From assembly GCA_000827265.1 (NCBI GenBank), contig KN834804.1:72922-136921 (forward strand): a stretch of 64,000 nucleotides of DNA, read 5' to 3'. Below are positions 185 to 43,187 of this stretch, piece by piece (positions within the stretch are counted from its first letter, which is position 1; every line of letters begins with the position of its first letter). The notes beneath the pieces were generated by a model. It was not told the origin of the DNA and searched no databases. It saw only the letters and a program-made list of their open reading frames with translations. The position numbers and the translations under genes are program-made. Source of the stretch: Collybiopsis luxurians FD-317 M1 (taxonomy: Eukaryota; Basidiomycota; Agaricomycetes; Agaricales; Omphalotaceae).

Positions 185-2181
185 TCAGGTAACTTTGCGC
201 ACACTCACAGAAAAGTATGGAAACAAAGTTCCTGTCCCATCATTGCAAGCTAATAGCATGTAATATGCTTCCCCTAGACTACAAGTATGAGCCCAACCCC
301 ACAGATCCAGACTGACACAATCCAAAGGCTCCATAGAAGGTACTACAATGTCATCAAAAGGCCATTGCTTCACCTTCACAAACAGACAAACCTTGCATTT
401 CCCACATAGAGAAATCAGAAACTTCCAATCCTTCCACCACCTCTCGCTTTGCCATGATACAGATGAGGTTCACATCAGCATGTCTGAATCTAGTGTGCCA
501 CATCTCCAGTGAACAGGGTTTCAACCGGGAGCAACCAGAGGAAGCCAAAACATAGGAAGAGTCATAACAAGGAACACTGCAAGTTAAAGGTAAGGAAGAA
601 TTATCAATCTCATCAACAACATTCACCTGATATAGCCCATGTTTACCATTTCCGCTAGCCAGATGTCCATCAACAACCACAGCATTAGAAACCAGGTGTT
701 GGACTTCTATACAGCCATTTCCCCATACTCCCCAATACCCCTTCCAATCCATAGATGGCATGGAAAGGAGATTCATAGCAAAGGATGGAGTATGAGAAGC
801 TGGAAAATGAAGGTGATGAACAGATCCCTGTTGAGTCTTCACTGTGATCTCTGCAATTCCATACCCCTCAATGGCGAAAGCTCCTGCTTGTCCTTCAGTA
901 GCCATACGACCAGATGACTTAGCTGGATAATAATGAATAAACCACTGTCAATTCCAAATGCACCAGTGGGAGACCGTGCTATCAATAAAGGTAGGAAATT
1001 GTATTATGCGACACTAGACGACTAGGTATGTGGGACAACTTTACACTATCTGTACTGCTCTGACCATCCCTTAGAAGGGCAGGAGTTTCTCATTCCAATC
1101 TAGCGGAACAGACATTAGGTTTGGCAGAGCAATACAGAAAGTGTCCTGTATCTCTGGGTTCAAAATCACCAAAGTCGTAGATAGCGGCTGCAATGGTAGT
1201 GCTGGATGGAGTAGAGTCAATTGAAGAGGAAGTGATGACAGGAGCTGGACTAGCAGCCTTGGTAGGTTCCATCCCTTTTGGGGCTGTATACCATTTCGGT
1301 CCCTTTCCCTCACTTCTGCCCCCTCTTGCCCAACAATTCTTAACATGACTGGTGCACTTACAATTGTCACAGATGATACCTGAAGTACTCCTAGACCCAG
1401 TGATGAGTGTGTTCAAAGATGAATCAATCACCAACAGAGTTGTCACTGATTTGACCATCATATTGTACTTGATGAGTATGCACTTCAATTCCAGATAGGC
1501 CCTAGCTCCATGTGTTTGGATAATCCACAGGTATTCCAGGGTAAGTAAGGTGAGGAATTGAGAACAAAGATCTTCAGAAGTTATAGTACATCCGATGTCA
1601 CTTGCAGCTTTGCATAAAGCTTCAAGTTGCTGGAAGTACTCTTCAAAGGGTGTACTAGGAGGGTACTTGAACTGTTGAATATGTTCCTTGACCAGGGTCT
1701 GGGCTGCAGCTGAAGTTGTATCAAACTCAGTGGTAAGAGCTGTCCACATAGCCTGAGCAGACAAATCCTGAGAAATGCCTAGGGATCGATGGTCCTTGAT
1801 ATTTTGATAGATGATTCCAGCAATTTGTGCATCACGCAGTTCCCATTCCTCAATGGATGGTGAATGCAAATTTATGGGAGTAGGCCGAGGAACGGCAGTT
1901 GGTATGCCTGCGGCAGGTGGGGTAGGGGAAGGGATGGTACTGTCGAGATACTCAATGAGCCCAGTTGCTTGTGCAACACTTTTAAGATGACCACGAAAGA
2001 TGGCCCAGTTGCTTAGCCCGACGAGTTGGCAATCTTCTGGGAAGACAATGAGATTGGGTAGGGAATTCATGGAGGAAGTAGTCATCTTCGAGGTTGACCG
2101 TTGTGCCAATTTAGGAAGTACAAGATTATCACTATTCTGACTGCGAATCTGTGAAATGGCTAACATCCTAGTTAAGTACAC
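185..2181 (-). mobile_element. Truncated Ty1/copia retrotransposon (gag, protease and integrase start)
   Basis: On the minus strand the open frame at 2181-1090 reads like a copia Gag: a UBN2-like helical capsid region followed by a CCHC-like knuckle (C-X2-C-X4-H-X3-C, one residue short of the usual spacing). A second open stretch, 905-354, carries a GAG-pre-integrase motif (WHTRFRHADVN). The frame at 379-185 resembles the start of the integrase core (CVSLDLWGW). Reverse transcriptase and RNase H are absent, and homology stops near position 185, so this is a 3'-truncated, non-autonomous remnant. The three open pieces lie in different frames, which suggests decay. The domain order Gag-PR-INT identifies copia rather than gypsy. 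Confidence 0.8.
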
Positions 2182-2183
2182 AA

Positions 2184-2568
2184 GGCCTCAGAACGATAGA
2201 AAGGTTCTCTTATTTACCTAATGTCCTACTTAAGTACACAAGGCTATAGGTAAATGTAAGTAAAGAAATGAAGATGAGATAAAAGAGAAATGTACCCTCA
2301 GAATGATAGAAAGGTTCTGAGGGGCGTAGAACAAACTCGAGGAATAAATATGGGAACTCGGGTCAATGAAGAAGCTATGGAATAACTAAGAAGAAGGTGA
2401 AACCAGTAAGAAAAGATACCCGCACGGAAACAGAAACGGAGGCAACATAACACGAAGGTAACTGCCTATATGCAGCCCCTGTGTACGCGGTCACGGGAAC
2501 ATCCCTCAGGACACCAATATGTGCTGCGCCACGCCGCGCCATCCTACTATACCTATACATTTCCAACA
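2184..2568 (-). repeat. Probable 5' LTR and leader of the copia remnant
   Basis: Immediately upstream of the gag frame, minus-strand sequence begins TGTTGGAAATG at about 2568, the usual start of copia LTRs. Inside it is a direct duplication: a 20-bp motif (cagaaygatagaaaggttct) occurs near 2186 and near 2304, and taagtacacaaggc near 2172 and 2233. The inner LTR end and a tRNA primer-binding site were not recognised, so the boundaries are approximate. Confidence 0.45.
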
Positions 2569-3331: not shown

Positions 3332-6279
3332 TTATAAAAATATTAGTAGGTACTGATGGTTTGAATAAATGAATCTAGTGTGCCTACATGAAAAGACAGA
3401 GAGGAACCGATGCTCTAACAATGAGGGTGTGTATCTTATCGCCAATTCCCGCAACTTAGGGCTTTGTAAAGGACCCTCTAAGCCAAATGCTGTATGCTGA
3501 TAGTATGGATGGTTCATCGCCTTGAACAATTTATCGACAGTGGGTCGGATCGACTGTCGCTGCGGACAACTGCCATAGTTCGAAATAATACGACCAATAT
3601 GCTCCCAGGGCCTTTTGTCTTCGAACCAAAATGAGTGTTCCGCAATCATCAGGACGTCTGTATAACAGGGCAGATCGGTTACATCTAGACTTCTCTTTTA
3701 TATAAGATACTAACCAATAAAGTAAGTGAGCAATTGTAAACCCTTCTTGAAGTTTGGATCCACCTAGCAAGAAGCATCAGCGATTGAGACACTGGAAACG
3801 AGTAAATGAGTCTTACCCAGGAAGTACATGCATGCACAACTAGATCCACGGAAGGTGTCGACGGGTTGGTAACCTAGAAAGCTGAAGAACGTACTTCTTG
3901 CAGATGATACGGGACAAACTAACCTCCTATATAATGCTAAGGAAGGATAGACATCTCAGAAAGATATGAACACTTACGACCTATCATGCATAGAGGCAGT
4001 CGGGGATTTCATTCTCCGATTGTTTAAGCGAACTCTCCAACATGTACTTACAGCCTAAGGAAGCAATGCTCAAGGTGTGAAGGGTAAACAGCTCAGAAGT
4101 GAAGGACGCACCAATTTGAACTGTTTCTCAGCAAACTGTATTATTATTGTTAGCTGCCACAAGAGGTAGTCAAGAGTCTCAGAAGACTCACATTCTACCG
4201 CAACAAGACAAGTCTGAGTTATTCAAATATGATCCAAGGAGATATCGACATACCCACTGCCAAAACCGGGTCATTAATGCAAGCGGGCAAATGCTATGCT
4301 CAATAACTTACATTCTGATACAGGACCACAAATTGGTTATTCAATTACTCCCCGCAGCCACTGAAAGTGATCAGACGTACCCACTGGACTCTAAAAGTTA
4401 GTTATAAGACTTAATTCAGAAAAAAAGAGCGCACATGCTAACGGAGACGATCATAAGAATGCATAAACATAAGTAACGAAGGATTTGAAGCGAGTGCTCA
4501 CATGCTAACAATGTTCACTTAGCATCGTGGATAATGCAAATTGTCGAGGTCACTTACTTTCTGGATATGGAATGTAGCTCTACGTGAGCAGACCCTTGAT
4601 TAGTAGTAGTACCAGCAGACTCACCACCTGGAAAAGTTTAGTGTCAGCGAATAATGCTTAAATCTGAATAGATTGAGCAGCGTACTTTCTGGATGAAATG
4701 ACAGAAGACTGCAATCAGTATCATGCAATTTTTTATGCTCTCGACTTACGAGATGCTGAAATTAAAGTATCATCAGAGTAAGCTTCTCAGCCTCCTGAAC
4801 CTCTAACAATTCATCGCTCACATTCTGCATAAGTCATATTAAAGAACAGACAAAAAGCCGGAGGAAAATATTTGCGCACTCACATCCTGATGATGCATAT
4901 CCACAGCAAATATGAATATGACAATGTCAACAGCATAAGGGATTCTACAACTTGCCCAGTATGGAAACAAACTAAGCAGGAAAATTGTCCATTCTCTCAA
5001 TTGGCCATGAGCTCCGACTGCAAACTCATGTTTGTTTGATAAGACTATGGCGCTGATTCAAGAGATTCATCAAAGCATTGGAAAATGGAAAAGGTAGCTA
5101 CTCACTGCACGAGTGCAATAGCCATTGCAATCTTGATATCACCGTGCTTTATCTCCAAGAAGAGCTGTTGATATACTTCATTCAGCACCAACCCTTCGGT
5201 AGATTCCGTGAGTTCATCAAAGCTTCCGGATGGCTGGTCCATTTCTAGTATTGTGTTGGTTCGTATTAGTAATTTTAGGTATGGCAATGAAATACACCTT
5301 TCAAATAAACATAGTATGCGGGTTTATGGCTCACATTGATGAAACGCTCATTTTGAATCACTTCGAAGTCCTGCCTAGCTTTTGCTGGTGCTTCTTTTCT
5401 AGCCTGCGCTATCGATTTGCCATCATCTCGCAATTGGCCAAAAGCTTTAGTGACTCTCCACTCGAATTTTGTAAACACAGCAATGACAGGAACTGTATGA
5501 AGTCTATGACTAGTGCACAGCTGCCAATAAAATCAACAACTGACCTCCCTCTGTACCATGGTTGAAAAAAGCCATTTCCTGCGGTCCCAATGGACGGTCA
5601 TTATCCACAGGAAGACAAAGCCTTTCCAGGAAAACACGATAAGACAGGGGACTAGTAGGGAATACAAAACTTACCAAATGACATGGAGACGCTGAGCGAG
5701 GATTTTTTTTTTCTGTTTATCTTCAATGAATTCGTTCAAGGTTTTAATCTCCGTTTCGGACCCGGCTTCCATCCCTCTTGAGTCGTGAAAAACGTAGTCC
5801 TCATCACTGCGTTGGGGAGATTTAGTACAGGAATTATCCGAATGCTATCAGTGTACCTCGGATAAGTAATTTCGTATTCAATGTGAGAACGACCCCGCTG
5901 CCCAGTTCAATTGCTTCATTAATGATACAGCCCCAAGTAATACTTTTAACAGCTTACTTCTACTGAAGGCCGAAGAATTGTATCGGGATCGATCTAGACA
6001 AATGTAAATCAGTTTATATGCTGAAGGCCCCCCTAAATAGAACCTTACCAGTTCACCTTCGCTGCTGCGAATGAATACTTGCCCGTCTGAGCTACCAGCC
6101 ATTCTCTGCAGCAAGGTGGTTTTGCCGGCATTCCGCCTGCCCATTACCAGGATACGGATCCGAGGACAGTATTCCTTCACCGTTTGTGTAACATCAGCGA
6201 ACTTGTCGAATGCTCGCGAAAGGGTATTTGTTGAGAATGTAGAACCCACGGAAAGAGTACGCTCAGACCGTGGCGGCAT
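3332..6279 (-). CDS. P-loop GTPase-like protein G1 with membrane-type tail and 15 microexons
   Basis: This protein of about 501 residues is assembled from 26 exons. Seen directly: Walker A/G1 GRRNAGKT at residues 47-54, a DxxG/G3 box in HDSRG near 110-114, and a G4-like TKFE near 180-183 where TKxD is usual. A hydrophobic stretch near 303-337 could be a membrane hairpin. Main exons are 6049-6279, 5958-5993, 5857-5897, 5675-5806, 5545-5621, 5298-5492, 5106-5244 and 4884-5052. Fifteen microexons follow, then 3817-3873, 3715-3763 and 3332-3657. Every junction is GT-AG and the frame stays open to the stop. The start at 6279 matches paralogue G2 (40081-43187, plus). The C-terminal 120 residues are strongly shared with G2. 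The GTPase type is known as an expanded Agaricomycete family; its cellular role is not. Confidence 0.85.
3924..4824 (-). other. Microexon array of G1 (15 exons of 3, 6 or 9 nt)
   Basis: In transcript order the microexons lie at 4822-4824, 4750-4755, 4686-4688, 4625-4627, 4558-4560, 4502-4504, 4435-4437, 4381-4383, 4312-4314, 4254-4256, 4192-4194, 4112-4120, 4052-4054, 3978-3980 and 3924-3926. They encode N-HL-K-V-K-H-H-W-N-W-N-FKL-A-V-E. All are phase 0. Introns between them are about 50-71 nt, each starting GT(A/G)(A/C)G, GTACG or GTTAG and ending in AG. The same series occurs in G2 in the same order, with only one amino-acid difference. Confidence 0.85.
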
Positions 6280-21042: not shown

Positions 21043-21137
21043 GGGGGTATAGCTCAGCTGGGAGAGCAGCAGACTGAAGTCCTAATGTTGACTTGTTGCC
21101 TTTCTGAAGGTCCCGCGTTCGATCCGCGGTACCCCCA
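21043..21137 (+). tRNA. tRNA-Phe (GAA) with intron
   Basis: Acceptor GGGGGTA pairs with TACCCCC. The D arm is GCTC-AGCTGGGA-GAGC, the anticodon stem starts GCAGA, and the loop CTGAAG places anticodon GAA at 21076-21078. An intron of about 22 nt begins one base after the anticodon, the normal position. The 3' half has TCTGA, variable AGGTC and T arm CCGCG-TTCGATC-CGCGG. Pair 27-43 is a G-A mismatch. Discriminator base is A; CCA is not encoded. A and B box promoters are intact. Confidence 0.85.
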
Positions 21138-37938: not shown

Positions 37939-38463
37939 GTTGTAGGCTTCGTTTGTTGAGAGGTGAGTTGTTGATTTTTTCATGCCCTCCGTCAATGGGA
38001 CTCGTTTAGCTTACTTGAAGTTTTCTTTTGTCTTCTTTTAAGACTTCGAGGCAGGAAGGGACTGTCATTATGGATATCACTCTAGTCATTATTAAACTGT
38101 TATTCTAGCTATTTTTTCTTGTTGAAAAAAACAGTGTTCTCGGTAAATGCAGTGTTTTATCTATTTTCTTTGTCTGCTTTTGCGTTATCGTTCCATTTCC
38201 GCAACTTCTGAATCGTGTTGACGTTCCGGGCTTGAAAAGCTCGAATTCTGTTCAGAACGTTCAAGGTGATGACACTGACACACAGTAAAAGACTTGTCCT
38301 GTACCTGCGAAAAGAATGGATCAAGTTGAAAAGCCTTAGAGGAGTCTTCCGGAACGTACCTATTCAAGCGGTTCTTCACAACTACAGTACATGACTACAC
38401 AAAGGACTGAGCGCTGAGCAAAATTTAAAAAATCAGGACAAAAAAACAATTAATTCAATAATA
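37939..38463. other. Intergenic
   Basis: No gene recognised between the single-TM gene and the tRNA. Confidence 0.5.
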
Positions 38464-38554
38464 TGGGGGTACCGCGGATCGAACGCGGGACCTTCAGAAC
38501 AACAGCCAATCTACAAGCAACTTCAGTCTGCTCTCCCAGCTGAGCTATACCCCC
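38464..38554 (-). tRNA. tRNA-Phe-like gene (GAA), possibly defective
   Basis: Minus strand shows the same acceptor (GGGGGTA/TACCCCC), D arm, CTGAAG loop, T arm and 3' half as the tRNA at 21043, with a different intron of similar size. Between the D arm and the anticodon loop three bases are missing, so GAGC runs straight into AGACTGAAG. Position 26 and the first two anticodon-stem bases cannot all be formed. It is either a pseudogene or uses a shortened arm. Confidence 0.65.
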
Positions 38555-40080
38555 AACAAAAGGTTTATTCAAACCTGTAATGCTAAAGTCATTGACTAAA
38601 GGGCGTTGCCCAGACAAACTTCACATACGCTTGGCAATCTTATCTCAACCATATCAGGCTTATCGACTATGGCATGTGAATATGGCACGCCGGAAGTGGA
38701 AAATTTTCGGCCAATTGAATGATGAATTTTCGGAGCTGATCCTCCACGTGATTTTAGATAAACCTTATAAGGTTTATCTTCTATCGATTTGCTGGTCTAT
38801 GTATCATTATTTGTAACACGATTCAATTGAACCGAATTTTTTCCACCTTCAGTGTGTACATGGACTGAGAACTTTTTTTTAGGTATCCTCCCCTAACCTT
38901 AACCAAGCCCTAACTAGCTAGCAGGCGGACACGCTATGCACACTGCACAATCCCTAACCAACCTAACCCAGCCTCCCGAGCGCTTATCGTTATCAGTGTG
39001 GGAACTTGTGTAAACCTTGTCCGGGCAAGACGCAGATAAATAATTCAGAACGTAATTTTCAATTTTCTTCGGAATCGCGTCTGTCGAGAGAGGAACTTGA
39101 GGGAGCGCTTGGTGATTGTTTTGCCTGCGGCACGATTATACCTTAACCTATAAATCTTGTCTTCTCCCGTTTTTATTACCTACGGCCTACGCTTTCTGAG
39201 CTATCTATATGATAGGCAGGGAAAGTTGCGGCTACTATGGATCTGGCATCAAGGAAGACCTAAGACTCGAAACAATTGGCTTCCGAATTGCATCTATTGA
39301 AGGAGGAACTTGGGAGACCCGTCCAGAGCGCGCCTGATGAATGCCACGAGTGTGGTTTGTGGTACAATTATACCTCATCCTACCGATCTGTTTCGTATTG
39401 ATTGTCTATGTACCACCTACAATATCGGTGTCATTGTTGCTTACAGGATTAGCTTAGCAGTCCCAGAGCCTCTATATATATACAATCATTCCACTTAGAC
39501 CGCCCTCATCCTTTTGTACTTACCTACTCGGATTGTGCATCTGTCATTGAGAATATTTATATATTTTCAAATTCCAATAGCGACTAACCTAATGTATCAA
39601 GGTACTTGAGGTAGGTGAGCGACATCCATCTTGGACTCTAGGAAACGATCTCCGCACTGCATCCATCTATCCAAGGCGGGTTGAAATTTTGCCCTTCATA
39701 TCGGCATTAAACCACAGATTCGGATTGTTGTGACTTTGGATTGGGTTTCCTTCGCGGAAGTTTGCTGACTTCACCGTCGGTCATGTATACCGTATCAGTT
39801 CACTTCAGCTATTCTGCCGCTTCTACAGCCATTGAAAACGCGGAATCATGGATCTGTGCCTCATCCACCAACTAAAGTTTGACGCCGAAGGCATCAGAAA
39901 TATAGAACGTGCCTCAGCGTACATTATCAAGACCACAGCAGCGCTTTTCAATTTCGGGCTTTAATTGCTCGGTTCTCATGCCACACTTCTCCCGCATTTA
40001 TTATAAGATTAAGATACCGTGTACTGAGTGACTTGATCATCTCCTTCCTTCCCTCCCGCCGCTTCTCAAAGCTCTCGATC
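38555..40080. other. Intergenic with a diverged direct repeat
   Basis: No gene seen. Blocks near 39095-39150 and 39300-39385 share gaggaacttg-gga-gcgc and cacgattatacc/tacaattatacct words, a weak direct duplication. Confidence 0.45.
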
Positions 40081-43000
40081 ATGCAACATACTACTATTCC
40101 TACGGTGACACGACCTGAGCGTAGCTTATCTTTGGATTCTACATCCTCGACAAACACTATTTCGAGGGAATTTGAACAGTTCGCCGACATTGCACTGAAA
40201 GTAAAGGAGTACTGCCCTCGAATTCGCATCCTGGTGATAGGAAGGCGGAACGCAGGCAAAACAACGTTACTTCAGAAGGTGGCTCGTAACTCGGTGGGAA
40301 CAGTGATCATTCGCAACAAAGAAGGTAAACTGGTAGGTTCCACTTTGACTTGCTCTATTCAACAATCAAGCTTACATACATCTGTCTAGGTTGACCCCGG
40401 TATCCTCGAGCCTTCAACAGAGGTAAACTGCCAAATATTATGTGGATCTGTCTCTTGACTGAAGCAACTGGATTTGGCAGCGGGGTTGTAGTCTCATTGA
40501 GAACGAAATCACTTATCCTGGGTAAAATTAGTAATACTATTTGAGTGTGGCCCAGACTAAATTCTCCTATTACAGTGACGAAGACTATGTTTTTCATGAC
40601 TCCAGGGGAGTAGAAGCTGGCTTTGAAGAGGAATTGAACATTGTCAAAGAATTTATCAAAAACAAACAAGAAAAGAGATATCTCAGCCAGCGCATCCACG
40701 TCATTTGGTAAGCTTCACATCACCTACTTAACACCAGGTACAGCCTATCTTACTCTTCTTTTTCGGGAACAGGCTTTGCCTTCCAGTGGATAATGATCGC
40801 CCTTTGGGGCCAAAAGAAATGGCCTTCTTCGAACATGGGACAGAAGGAGGTTGGTTTTTAATGTTATGTGCAGAAGCCGTAGCCTGAGACTAACCGACTG
40901 CATGCAGTCCCCGTCATCGCCGTCTTTACAAAATTCGAGTGGAGAATCACCAAAGCCTTCAGCCAGTTGCGAGAAGAGGGGAAACCAGTAGCGCAGGCCA
41001 GAAGAGAAGCAGTGGTCAAAGCCATGGCGGACTTTAATAATATTCAACGCCAGCGCTTTGCCAACATGAGGTATCTGCCAGCATATTGTGTTTATTTGCG
41101 AGGTTTATGATATCACTATTATCCGTTGATTCAAGCTAACAAAATTCCAGAAATGGATAAGCCATCCGGAAACTGTGAAGAGCTTAGGGAAATTACCAGG
41201 CAGTTAGTCCAGAACGAAGTCAATCAACAGCTTTTCTCGGAAATAAAACACAGTGACATCAAGGTTACAGTGGCCATTGCGCTTGTGCAGTGAGTAGCTA
41301 CTCTTTCTATCTTCCTATTCATTGCTGATTCTTCTCCACCAGTGCCATAGTCTTATCAAGCAAGATTGAACTTGCAGTCGGAGCCCACAGTCAGCTGAAG
41401 GAGTGGACGATTTTTCTGCTTTCGTTGTTTCCGCACTGGGCAAGTTAATTTTATACCGTTGTCATCGTTTTAATCACTCTGGTTGTGGACTTTATGCGTC
41501 ATCAGGATGTGAGTATGCACTCTCTCTTCTGTTCTGTTTATTTTAAACATACCTTGAGCAGAATGTAAGGATTGATTTTTTGAAGATTACCAAGTAGTCT
41601 GACAAACCTCACTCTCATGATACTTCAACTTTTGCAGCATCTTGTAAGTCGTTTAAAATCATTGGCAAAGTGCATGGTTTTTATTGTCGTCTTCTATCAT
41701 GTCACCTAGAAAGTAAGCTGTTTAATATACAGGGACTCAAGCATCATTCGCTATACGCTGATCTTTTTCAGGTAGTAAGTCTGTTGGCATAAGTTTACCG
41801 ATCAATGTCTCCTTACATACAGCTATAATCCGTTCCCAGACTGTAAGTGATCCAACTATTCACATTATCCTCGATCCTGAACAAAAGCCATTAGCATGTG
41901 AGCATGGGTCTTGAATCTTTGACACTGATGTATCCCCGGTCTTCTAATGGCCCTCATTAGCATGTGCGCTCTTTTCTTTTGGCCCCGAGTTTTAAGGCTC
42001 AAGACTTTTGGAATGCAGTGGGTATGTCTGAAAACTTTCAGTGATCTCCCGTAGTAATGAAATATTCAATCTGTGGATCCGGTCTTGTACTAGAATGTAA
42101 GTAAACTTTTGAGCATATCATCCTCTTACATTACTGACCTAGCTTCAGTGGGTGCGTTGACACCCTCGTCAGGTAGTGATACTAAAATGATTGAGACTTG
42201 TTCCCATTCGGTAGAATGTGAGCTTTCCGAGTTTTTGACGAGTTCCAGCGGCTAACAATAGACTTGAATGGGGCCATCCAGTTCGCCGAAAAACAGTTCA
42301 AATTAGTGCGTGCTTTATGTATCAGAGGTTTATCCCTTATACACAACCGTCTCCTTAGGCTGTGAGTACATACTTCAAAGAGCCACTTGAATGACTGGAC
42401 AATGAAATCCCTAAATGCCATGATAGGTCGTAAGTATTCAGCGTTATTGGTGCAACGCTGTCCGTTTTTCTTCAACTGTCTACAGGAGGTTAGCTTATCC
42501 TGCAGGTGAATATCGCCGGAAGATACTTTTTTCAGCTTGATAGTGTAACAACCCATCGACACCTTCCGTGGATCTGGTTGTGAGAGCATGTCGTTCCTGG
42601 GTAGGAGTTTCACATCCTCATTTCTGGTTTCTCAATGACTGATGCTTATTGCCAGGTGGACCCAAACTTCCGAAAAGACCTACAACTGCTCACTTATTTT
42701 GTTGGTCAGTATCTGATGCGAATAAGAAGGCTCAGCCGATCTATAACATGATACAGATGTCCTGATGATTGCGGAACACTCGTTCTGGTACGAAGATAGA
42801 AAGCCATGGGAACATATTAATCTCATCATTTCTCAATACAACCATTGCCCTCAACGGAGATCAGTACGACTAACTATCGACCAATTGTTCCAGGCGATAA
42901 ACCACCCAACGTATCAGCATACAGCTTTTGGACTTGAGGGTCCTCTACAAAGTCTCAGCTTGCGGAAATTAGCCACAAAATTCACGCCCTTGTTGTTGCA

Positions 43001-43187
43001 TCATCGGTTCCTTTCTGCGTCCCCAATGCGATCCTGTAGGCTTATTTTGTTTCATTTATATCGTTACCTGCTAAAAGGGGTATACTCAACAGAGCATATT
43101 CGAGATCTAGATTCCGTTCATGATTTTAATTATCTAATAATCTTGTATGTACTTACAATGCAAAATGATCTCTGCCACCCAGCTTGA
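40081..43187 (+). pseudogene. P-loop GTPase-like paralogue G2, premature stop before the microexon tail
   Basis: Paralogue of G1 with the same 26-exon plan. Main exons: 40081-40332, 40390-40422, 40481-40521, 40576-40707, 40773-40849, 40908-41102, 41151-41289, 41343-41508; then 15 microexons; then 42544-42600, 42656-42704, 42757-43187. GRRNAGKT, HDSRG and TKFE are all present. Exon 8 has an in-frame TAA at 41446-41448, where G1 reads on (WASCRIPYAV), after a net 3-nt loss. If translated, about 324 residues carrying the whole GTP-binding part would remain without the tail. Because every downstream exon is still open and in phase, the stop may be recent, or the short form may be functional. G2 has a longer C-terminal end than G1. 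Confidence 0.75.
41562..42488 (+). other. Microexon array of G2 (15 exons of 3, 6 or 9 nt)
   Basis: Microexons: 41562-41564, 41638-41643, 41710-41712, 41772-41774, 41840-41842, 41895-41897, 41961-41963, 42019-42021, 42094-42096, 42149-42151, 42215-42217, 42297-42305, 42359-42361, 42427-42429, 42486-42488. They encode N-HL-K-V-T-H-H-W-N-W-N-FKL-A-V-E. Against G1 there are three silent third-position changes and one replacement (T for K). Introns are 52-79 nt. Confidence 0.85.

What the first reader, a model, noticed from the sequence alone, without database searches (positions are those of the whole stretch)
3924..4824. Fifteen consecutive microexons, thirteen of one codon, in GTPase G1
Between exon 8 (ending 4884) and the exon at 3817-3873, fifteen tiny exons encode 18 residues. 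All are phase 0 and separated by normal 50-71 nt GT-AG introns. A single 3-nt AG-NNN-GT match is trivial by chance, but the same series occurs in paralogue G2 in the same order while intron sequences have diverged. Differences are three silent changes and one replacement. That pattern means selection on the encoded peptide. I know of no fungal gene described with so long a run; exons of 3 nt need splicing across almost no exon definition.
Basis: partly seen in the sequence, partly recalled or inferred. Interest (0 to 1): 0.95.

Follow-up and report, generated by a model that had tools for sequence, protein, structure and literature searches.

The report
Protein segment spliced codon by codon
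In a mushroom gene for a likely GTPase, a run of sixteen tiny exon-like units, fourteen of them just one codon long, is kept in all four copies of the gene and is predicted to be spliced into a 24-residue piece of the protein, a longer run of minimal exons than any I found described and one that the public gene models seen here miss or cut short.

Summary
The window is from Collybiopsis luxurians. Gene G1 (minus strand, 6279-3332) carries 16 consecutive microexons, not 15, between exon 8 and exon 25. Fourteen are single codons, one is 6 nt and one 24 nt, together 24 residues. Exon 8 ends at 4956, not 4884: a GC-AG intron follows, and GAT (4886-4884) is itself a microexon. Four paralogues on the contig keep all 16. 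In a 3,248-column alignment, the only AG-NNN-GT sites shared by all four are the 14 single-codon exons. Microexon bases vary in 16 of 72 columns, adjoining intron interiors in 460 of 749. At the lowest intron cost tried, spliced alignment to two uninterrupted relatives recovers 16 or 17 of 17 introns in each copy. A C. confluens model joins exon 8 to the 24-nt exon; Rhodocollybia and Stygiomarasmius proteins have W-D contiguous. The likely mechanism is ordinary short-intron (intron-definition) splicing, step by step, helped by strong donors. No transcript of this species was seen, so inclusion and splicing order are predicted. Single microexons down to 1 nt are known in fungi; I found no report of such a run.

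The parts
4956..5052 (-). G1 exon 8, ends ..LSLFPYW (TGG), followed by a GC-AG intron 4955-4887
   Evidence: in-frame TAA or frameshift if read on in G2, G3, G4; FPYW joined to the 24-nt exon in C. confluens P0048
4884..4886 (-). G1 microexon 9, GAT (D)
   Evidence: GAT in 4 of 4 paralogues; W-D contiguous in Rhodocollybia P0007-P0009 and Stygiomarasmius P0014
4822..4824 (-). G1 microexon 10, AAT (N)
   Evidence: AAT in 4 of 4 paralogues; N in P0010 and P0049
4750..4755 (-). G1 microexon 11, CATCTC (HL), 6 nt
   Evidence: CATCTC/CATCTT/TATCTT/TATTTT in the four
4686..4688 (-). G1 microexon 12, AAA (K)
   Evidence: AAA in 4 of 4
4625..4627 (-). G1 microexon 13, GTG (V)
   Evidence: GTG/GTA/GTG/GTG
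4558..4560 (-). G1 microexon 14, AAA (K; T in the other three)
   Evidence: AAA/ACT/ACA/ACA
4502..4504 (-). G1 microexon 15, CAT (H)
   Evidence: CAT in 4 of 4
4435..4437 (-). G1 microexon 16, CAT (H)
   Evidence: CAT in 4 of 4
4381..4383 (-). G1 microexon 17, TGG (W)
   Evidence: TGG in 4 of 4; W at the same ungapped position in P0049
4312..4314 (-). G1 microexon 18, AAT (N)
   Evidence: AAT/AAT/AAT/AAC
4254..4256 (-). G1 microexon 19, TGG (W)
   Evidence: TGG in 4 of 4; in G2 and G4 an upstream acceptor (LQW / SEW, 9 nt) is an alternative
4192..4194 (-). G1 microexon 20, AAT (N)
   Evidence: AAT in 4 of 4
4112..4135 (-). G1 microexon 21, 24 nt, FAEKQFKL
   Evidence: all four; FAEKEFKL joined to FPYW in C. 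confluens P0048
4052..4054 (-). G1 microexon 22, GCT (A)
   Evidence: GCT in 4 of 4
3978..3980 (-). G1 microexon 23, GTC (V)
   Evidence: GTC in 4 of 4
3924..3926 (-). G1 microexon 24, GAG (E)
   Evidence: GAG in 4 of 4
3817..3873 (-). G1 exon 25, VTNPSTPSVDLVVHACTSW
   Evidence: NNPSTPSVDK.. in C. confluens P0048
3332..6279 (-). Whole gene G1, 27 exons; the database protein P0001 stops after exon 7. The 3' end of exon 27 is uncertain (TAA at 3332 if there is no further intron)
41506..41508 (+). G2 microexon 9, GAT
41562..41564 (+). G2 microexon 10, AAT
41638..41643 (+). G2 microexon 11, CATCTT
41710..41712 (+). G2 microexon 12, AAA
41772..41774 (+). G2 microexon 13, GTA
41840..41842 (+). G2 microexon 14, ACT
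41895..41897 (+). G2 microexon 15, CAT
41961..41963 (+). G2 microexon 16, CAT
42019..42021 (+). G2 microexon 17, TGG
42094..42096 (+). G2 microexon 18, AAT
42149..42151 (+). G2 microexon 19, TGG (possibly 42143-42151, LQW)
42215..42217 (+). G2 microexon 20, AAT
42282..42305 (+). G2 microexon 21, 24 nt, FAEKQFKL
42359..42361 (+). G2 microexon 22, GCT
42427..42429 (+). G2 microexon 23, GTC
42486..42488 (+). G2 microexon 24, GAG
40081..43007 (+). Gene G2, paralogue with the same 27-exon structure (modelled as far as ..LLLHHR)

Best explanation
Sixteen consecutive phase-0 microexons, fourteen of one codon each, lie between exon 8 and exon 25 of a likely GTPase gene and are predicted to be spliced into its mRNA as a 24-residue stretch of the carboxy-terminal domain. 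Shown by sequence: the sixteen units, their AG and GT borders and most of their codons are kept in four paralogues whose introns have diverged to about 63% identity, and the joined peptide occupies the same place, at nearly the same length, as a contiguous stretch in two uninterrupted relatives. Inferred: the spliceosome pairs donor and acceptor across each 49-81-nt intron (intron definition), so exon length does not matter for recognition. A 3-nt exon cannot hold the donor and acceptor machinery at once, so neighbouring introns would be removed one after another, each removal fusing a codon to the growing exon. The donors next to the tiny exons fit the consensus more often than those of the rest of the gene, which would make up for the missing exonic U1 contact. 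Because every unit is whole codons in phase 0, skipping a unit would cost residues but not the frame; retention of nearly any one intron gives a stop or a frameshift.
For: Four paralogues share all 16 units. The only AGNNNGT aligned in all four over 3,248 columns are the 14 single-codon exons. Variable columns: microexons 16 of 72, adjoining intron interiors 460 of 749 (Fisher p 1.6e-10); those introns are as diverged as the gene's ordinary introns (216 of 334, p 0.34). Third positions vary in 11 of 24, first and second in 5 of 48 (p 0.0017). Spliced alignment with site models trained only on the 36 ordinary introns of the four genes and no minimum exon size recovers 17, 16, 17, 16 of 17 introns in G1-G4 with either P0049 or P0010 at intron cost 10; 15 randomisations of the DNA per gene score at best -20.5 against 56-70. 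With no protein at all it recovers 16, 12, 10, 15 of 17. P0048 of C. confluens reads FPYW-FAEKEFKL-I-NNPSTPSVD, which fits the exon-8 end, the 24-nt exon and exon 25. P0007 and P0009 (Rhodocollybia) and P0014 (Stygiomarasmius) read W-D then V-S or V-R, as a donor read through would; P0008 reads W-D then G-K: in all four D is fused to exon 8. Donors G(T/C)RNGB (pattern chosen after seeing them; it includes four GC donors): 64 of 68 next to microexons, 15 of 36 ordinary, p 6e-9; strict GTRNGY 58 of 68 and 12 of 36. Retention of one intron: stop in 42, frameshift in 22, in frame without a stop in 4 of 68.
Against: No RNA of this species was available, so inclusion in mRNA is not shown. P0010 and P0049 are taken as cDNA-like from contig lengths of 1,435 and 1,708 nt; their DNA was not read, and P0049 begins at the first Met of the exon-7 equivalent, so it could come from genomic DNA with an uninterrupted 3' part. 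Peptide homology within the segment is modest: the score of the joined peptide is reached by 130, 150, 90, 33 (P0049) and 112, 147, 77, 24 (P0010) of 2,000 order shuffles for G1-G4, and in the DP control the best of 15 shuffled proteins exceeded the real one for G1, not for G2-G4. At intron costs 12 and 14, P0049 on G1 gives 13 of 17 introns. Acceptors next to microexons score lower than ordinary ones (mean 4.4 against 5.6 bits), and G4's exon 19 has TGAG. In G2 and G4 exon 19 may be 9 nt. The C. confluens and M. crinis-equi models leave the 3-nt exons out, which I read as a limit of gene prediction.
Confidence: 0.88

Rival explanations
1. The 1.1-kb span is one long intron (or two around the 24-nt exon), and the AG-NNN-GT units are unused or chance.
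For: Skipping all units keeps the frame; the C. confluens model joins FPYW to FAEKEFKL and then to exon 25.
Against: Units and codons conserved in 4 copies with no other conserved AGNNNGT; codon-position bias; ordinary introns here are 47-68 nt, so a 1.1-kb intron would be an outlier; P0010 and P0049 carry a 42-residue stretch between FPYW and SW where the joined model has 41.
Confidence: 0.06
2. The units are recursive splice sites: steps for removing one long intron piecemeal, with the 3 nt not kept in the mRNA or not important.
For: Adjacent AG and GT resemble ratchet sites; sequential removal is expected in either case (inference).
Against: Recursive sites, as recalled, have zero-length exons (AG|GT); here exactly one codon is kept, with mostly third-position changes, D is fused to exon 8 in other genera, and the joined peptide aligns with uninterrupted relatives.
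Confidence: 0.04
3. The units are real exons but mostly alternative: the run works as a codon-by-codon cassette that makes many protein variants. (This shares the exon claim of the best explanation and differs in the use of the exons.)
For: All 16 are whole-codon, phase 0, so any subset keeps frame; microexon genes of schistosomes are a precedent for runs of short exons that are mostly multiples of three (PMC10526429, passages).
Against: Two uninterrupted relatives carry the full-length stretch; donors near the consensus argue for constitutive use; no isoform data.
Confidence: 0.12

Closest known systems
Single tiny exons in fungi: the 1-nt exon of Fusarium CYP621A (PMC12940212, passages seen) and 2-10-residue exons of Phanerochaete P450 genes (PMC1184071, passages seen)
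   Same: Exons of one to a few nt or residues between short fungal introns, hard for gene prediction; the Fusarium one was found from a gap in the protein and a conserved AG-N-GT
   Different: One 1-nt exon in the Fusarium genes; shortest 6 bp in the Phanerochaete P450 set; here 16 in a row, 14 of one codon, in four paralogues
Micro-exon genes (MEG) of Schistosoma mansoni (PMC10526429, passages seen)
   Same: 10-20 very short exons, mostly multiples of three
   Different: MEG exons are 6-81 bp (3-81 in the abstract) with introns of 0.1-5 kb, and encode secreted proteins; here one-codon exons, 49-81-nt introns, one segment of a likely GTPase
Plant microexons (PMC8831610, passages seen)
   Same: Conserved 1-15-nt exons missing from annotation; GTRAGT donors at the 1-nt exon of VPS55
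   Different: Single or, in one validated rice case, a 5-nt and a 12-nt pair; no long run in the passages seen
3-bp micro-exon of Drosophila homothorax (PMC7392893, title and abstract start in a search listing)
   Same: A one-codon exon
   Different: One exon, alternatively spliced; here fourteen in one gene
Immunity-related GTPases such as Irga6 (PDB 4lv5, 1tq6; Foldseek)
   Same: Best-ranked structural matches of the modelled relative P0010 (E 3e-6)
   Different: TM about 0.4, 12-14% identity in the top five, rmsd about 13-14, low confidence in the C-terminal part; no membership claimed

Membership tests
Coding microexon | Exon of 30 nt or less (definition in the abstract of PMC8042270, seen in a listing) between spliceosomal splice sites | tested here: met
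   16 exons of 3, 6 or 24 nt with AG before and GT after in 4 of 4 paralogues; the first intron is GC-AG
Coding microexon | Evolutionary constraint as coding sequence | tested here: met
   16 of 72 against 460 of 749 variable columns; third-position bias p 0.0017
Coding microexon | Present in mature mRNA | tested here: inconclusive
   Only cDNA-like proteins of relatives (P0010, P0049); no RNA of this species
Micro-exon gene (MEG) | Gene made of short exons of 6-81 bp | tested here: not met
   Microexons are 16 of 27 exons but 72 of about 1,400 coding nt, and 14 are 3 nt
Micro-exon gene (MEG) | Long introns (0.1-5 kb) | tested here: not met
   49-81 nt next to microexons
Recursive splice site | Zero-length exon AG|GT (recalled definition) | tested here: not met
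   One codon between AG and GT in all 14 single-codon units in 4 of 4 paralogues
GTPase of the MMR_HSR1 type | Pfam PF01926 above its cut-off | tested here: inconclusive
   G1 20.1 bits, cut-off 21.9; relative P0010 25.3 bits
GTPase of the MMR_HSR1 type | P-loop GxxxxGKT (motif recalled) | tested here: met
   GRRNAGKTT in all four copies
Immunity-related GTPase | Confident fold match over G domain and helical domain | tested here: inconclusive
   Foldseek E 3e-6 but TM 0.42, rmsd 13.9; pLDDT blocks from residue 251 on 32-63

The most novel reading that the evidence does not exclude
This is the first gene known in which a protein segment is assembled almost codon by codon by the spliceosome: an obligate, ordered series of 17 splicing events across 14 one-codon exons, kept over the split between Omphalotaceae and Marasmiaceae, where each codon can be dropped singly without shifting the frame, so splicing can act as a codon-level editor of the GTPase. 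The same hidden array would explain why database proteins of this family break off or jump at the same place in several mushroom genera.
Probability: 0.22. Interest if true: 0.95.

Novelty: new variant of a known kind. Interest (0 to 1): 0.82.

Why it matters
It shows that coding sequence can be cut to a nearly unbroken run of single codons and still be kept through gene duplication, which puts the burden of recognition on the intron and makes the order of splicing directly testable in one small gene. It also exposes an annotation gap: the gene models seen for this family in several mushroom genera stop or jump at or near this segment, so its carboxy-terminal domain has been missed. The uniform phase 0 and exact one-codon spacing leave open how such an array arose.

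Tried and rejected
Origin of the introns as copies of one another: no general similarity (mean z 0.0 to 0.28 in the four genes; best 4.6 of 136 pairs in G1). One pair, the introns after exons 11 and 15, is among the six best in all four genes (z 2.2-3.3). Compared across genes it has the highest mean z, 1.95, followed by the introns after the two TGG exons, 17 and 19, with 1.74. That is a weak hint at internal duplication, not shown; my notebook entry that nothing repeats across genes was too strong. Distant GTPase genes on C35, C51 and C182 as a contiguous-exon reference: tblastn finds no match to the segment in the five stretches fetched. I viewed translations for C35 and C182 only, and the C182 one runs into masked N. 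A non-coding RNA in the span: Rfam at gathering thresholds gives none there. Relatives in viral contigs with P0010 as query: none. A structural role for the segment: the model of P0010 has pLDDT about 42-62 over it (residues 294-335), so nothing can be said beyond partly helical. A Dynamin_N search of the genome was not used further. A first four-way alignment had three genes on the wrong strand and was redone. G2 exon 3 was first cut one base short and corrected.

Literature: searches (open-licence PMC only). No listed title, abstract start or passage that I saw describes a run of one-codon exons; most subscription papers are not held, and lists were capped.
Full report
What was checked. The window lies on contig C56 of a 64-Mb genome. 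P0001 of Collybiopsis luxurians FD-317 M1 (284 aa) aligns at 100% identity to the first seven exons of G1 and lies on a contig of the same length as C56, 363,867. That record stops after exon 7, so the carboxy-terminal part of the gene is missing from it.

Anatomy. Reading G1 on the minus strand gives 27 exons. Exons 9-24 are GAT, AAT, CATCTC, AAA, GTG, AAA, CAT, CAT, TGG, AAT, TGG, AAT, a 24-nt exon (FAEKQFKL), GCT, GTC, GAG; exon 25 starts GTTACCAACCCG. The 17 introns from exon 8 to exon 25 are 50-71 nt in G1 and 49-81 nt over four genes. All 17 are phase 0, while introns 1-7 are phases 0,0,2,2,1,1,2. I place it at 4956: the next bases are GCAAGT, a GC-AG donor, in all four genes. Reading on gives TAA in G2 and a frameshift in G3 and G4. 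Database proteins of other species agree: C. confluens P0048 joins FPYW to FAEKEFKL. Rhodocollybia P0007 and P0009 and Stygiomarasmius P0014 read W-D followed by V-S or V-R, as GAT fused to exon 8 and then a donor read through would give. Rhodocollybia P0008 reads W-D-G-K. Codons there are inferred from the protein; I did not see their DNA.

Paralogues. A DNA search of the own genome finds four copies, all on C56: G1, G2 (window 40081-43007), G3 (C56 60540 downwards) and G4 (C56 66081 downwards). All four give open 27-exon models with the same 16 microexons. Across 3,248 aligned columns, the AGNNNGT sites present in all four number 14, and all 14 are the single-codon exons. Interiors of the microexon introns (6 nt trimmed at each end) are 63% identical on average and vary in 460 of 749 ungapped columns; ordinary introns vary in 216 of 334, which does not differ (p 0.34). 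Microexon columns vary in 16 of 72 (p 1.6e-10), single-codon ones in 4 of 42. Third positions vary in 11 of 24, first and second in 5 of 48. Third positions of the single-codon exons (3 of 14) vary less than those of exons 4-8 (136 of 214, p 0.003), so these bases probably also serve splicing.

Unaided gene finding. I trained donor and acceptor weights on the 36 ordinary introns of the four genes only. A spliced-alignment program with no minimum exon size, given 52 residues of P0049 or P0010 from LLSLFPYW to SW, returned 17, 16, 17, 16 of the 17 model introns for G1-G4 at intron cost 10. At costs 12 and 14 the counts were the same except P0049 on G1, 13 of 17. In G2 and G4 the program prefers an upstream acceptor at exon 19, giving LQW or SEW for W; this is open. 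Without any protein it finds 16, 12, 10, 15 of 17. With the span's DNA randomised (Markov-1, 15 times per gene) the best score is -20.5 against 56-70, and some randomisations have no path at all. With the protein shuffled (15 times per gene) the real score is above all shuffles for G2-G4 but not for G1. Chains of 3-nt exons are short in random DNA: ten 64-kb sequences give 1-3 at the laxest threshold, where G1-G4 give 9, 5, 9, 7; at the two stricter thresholds G1-G4 fall to 4, 3, 3, 7 and to 3 each, random to 1-2 and 1.

Peptide homology. P0010 (372 aa, contig 1,435 nt) and P0049 (233 aa, contig 1,708 nt) read through the segment without a break. P0010 spans the places of introns 1-7 of G1 as well, so cDNA is the simplest reading. 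P0049 begins at the first Met of the exon-7 equivalent, so it could instead come from genomic DNA with an uninterrupted 3' part or from an RNA that kept an upstream intron. In each case its segment is contiguous. Between FPYW and SW both have 42 residues and the joined models 41. NNFFHLEKHWEV of P0049 aligns without gaps to DNYFKVTHHWNW of G4. The first 13 residues are matched or beaten by 35 (G4), 101 (G3), 294 (G1) and 332 (G2) of 20,000 shuffles against P0049, and by 74 to 709 against P0010. Whole-segment order shuffles reach the real score in 33 (G4) to 150 (G2) of 2,000 against P0049 and 24 to 147 against P0010. So homology of the segment is supported but not strong by itself; it stands with the conservation and boundary evidence. 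Within this family, M. crinis-equi P0011 jumps from FPHW to the exon-25 equivalent, and M. tenuissimus P0013 reads W then V-C, at the same point.

Mechanism. Fungal introns of this size are taken to be recognised across the intron (recalled). That frees exon length. Next to microexons the donors match G(T/C)RNGB in 64 of 68 cases against 15 of 36 in the rest of the gene (pattern chosen after inspection), and strict GTRNGY in 58 of 68 against 12 of 36, as expected if intronic bases must replace the exonic part of U1 pairing. Acceptors are somewhat weaker (4.4 against 5.6 bits on average), and a branch-site-like YTNAY occurs in 53 of 68 against 30 of 36. With three bases between acceptor and donor, both are unlikely to be occupied at once, so I infer stepwise removal. 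Retention of a single intron gives an internal stop in 42, a frameshift in 22 and an in-frame insert without a stop in 4 of 68 cases, so the full product depends on nearly all 17 steps, whereas skipping units keeps the frame.

What the protein is. It has a P-loop (GRRNAGKTT) and a weak MMR_HSR1 match (20.1 bits, below the cut-off of 21.9; P0010 25.3, above it). The model of P0010 has a good G domain and an uncertain, partly helical C-terminus; Foldseek's best matches are immunity-related GTPases at TM about 0.4. I claim only 'likely GTPase with a helical carboxy-terminal part'.

Novelty. A 1-nt exon in Fusarium with reads to support it (PMC12940212), 2-10-residue exons in Phanerochaete (PMC1184071), plant 1-nt exons (PMC8831610) and schistosome micro-exon genes (PMC10526429) show that tiny exons and runs of short exons exist; of each I saw passages. 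In the ten literature searches listed I found no run of one-codon exons. I therefore call it a new variant of a known kind, at an extreme. A 2024 paper states that functional microexons had not been described before in filamentous fungi (PMC11121469, abstract).

Limits. No RNA, no orthologous genomic DNA and no genome-wide count of such runs could be obtained here.

Noticed in passing
window 354-2187, minus strand: Copia-type retrotransposon remains on the 3' side of G1: ORF 1090-2187 matches Retrotran_gag_2 (54 bits) and ORF 354-947 weakly matches GAG-pre-integrase (20.5 bits, below the cut-off of 28.4).
   Followed up: partly
window 38463-38555 (-) and 21043-21137 (+): ARAGORN calls one tRNA-Asn at 38463-38555 (-) and not the tRNA that Rfam finds at 21043-21137 (+); Rfam at its gathering score in turn does not list the ARAGORN one.
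   Followed up: no
window 4955-4887 and the same place in G2-G4: A GC-AG intron (GCAAGT) in all four paralogues, while W-D is unbroken in Rhodocollybia and Stygiomarasmius proteins: an intron gain or loss within the family.
   Followed up: partly
G000:C56 56091-117438: Database models split or truncate these genes: P0001 (G1), P0003 (G4) and P0006 (G2) stop after exon 7, P0002 (G3) is partial in exon 8, and P0047 is a separate model of G4's last exon.
   Followed up: partly
proteins P0018, P0019, P0022, P0023, P0024, P0027, P0028, P0030, P0031, P0036, P0040 (Rhizopogon, Scleroderma): These database proteins of the wider family end at the exon-7 position or just after FPH/MPY, so a similar hidden array may reach beyond the genera discussed; their DNA was not seen.
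   Followed up: no
G1-G4, introns after exons 11 and 15, and after exons 17 and 19: Weak similarity between these intron pairs across genes (mean z 1.95 and 1.74); exons 17 and 19 are both TGG and each is followed by AAT, which could be a trace of an internal duplication.
   Followed up: partly
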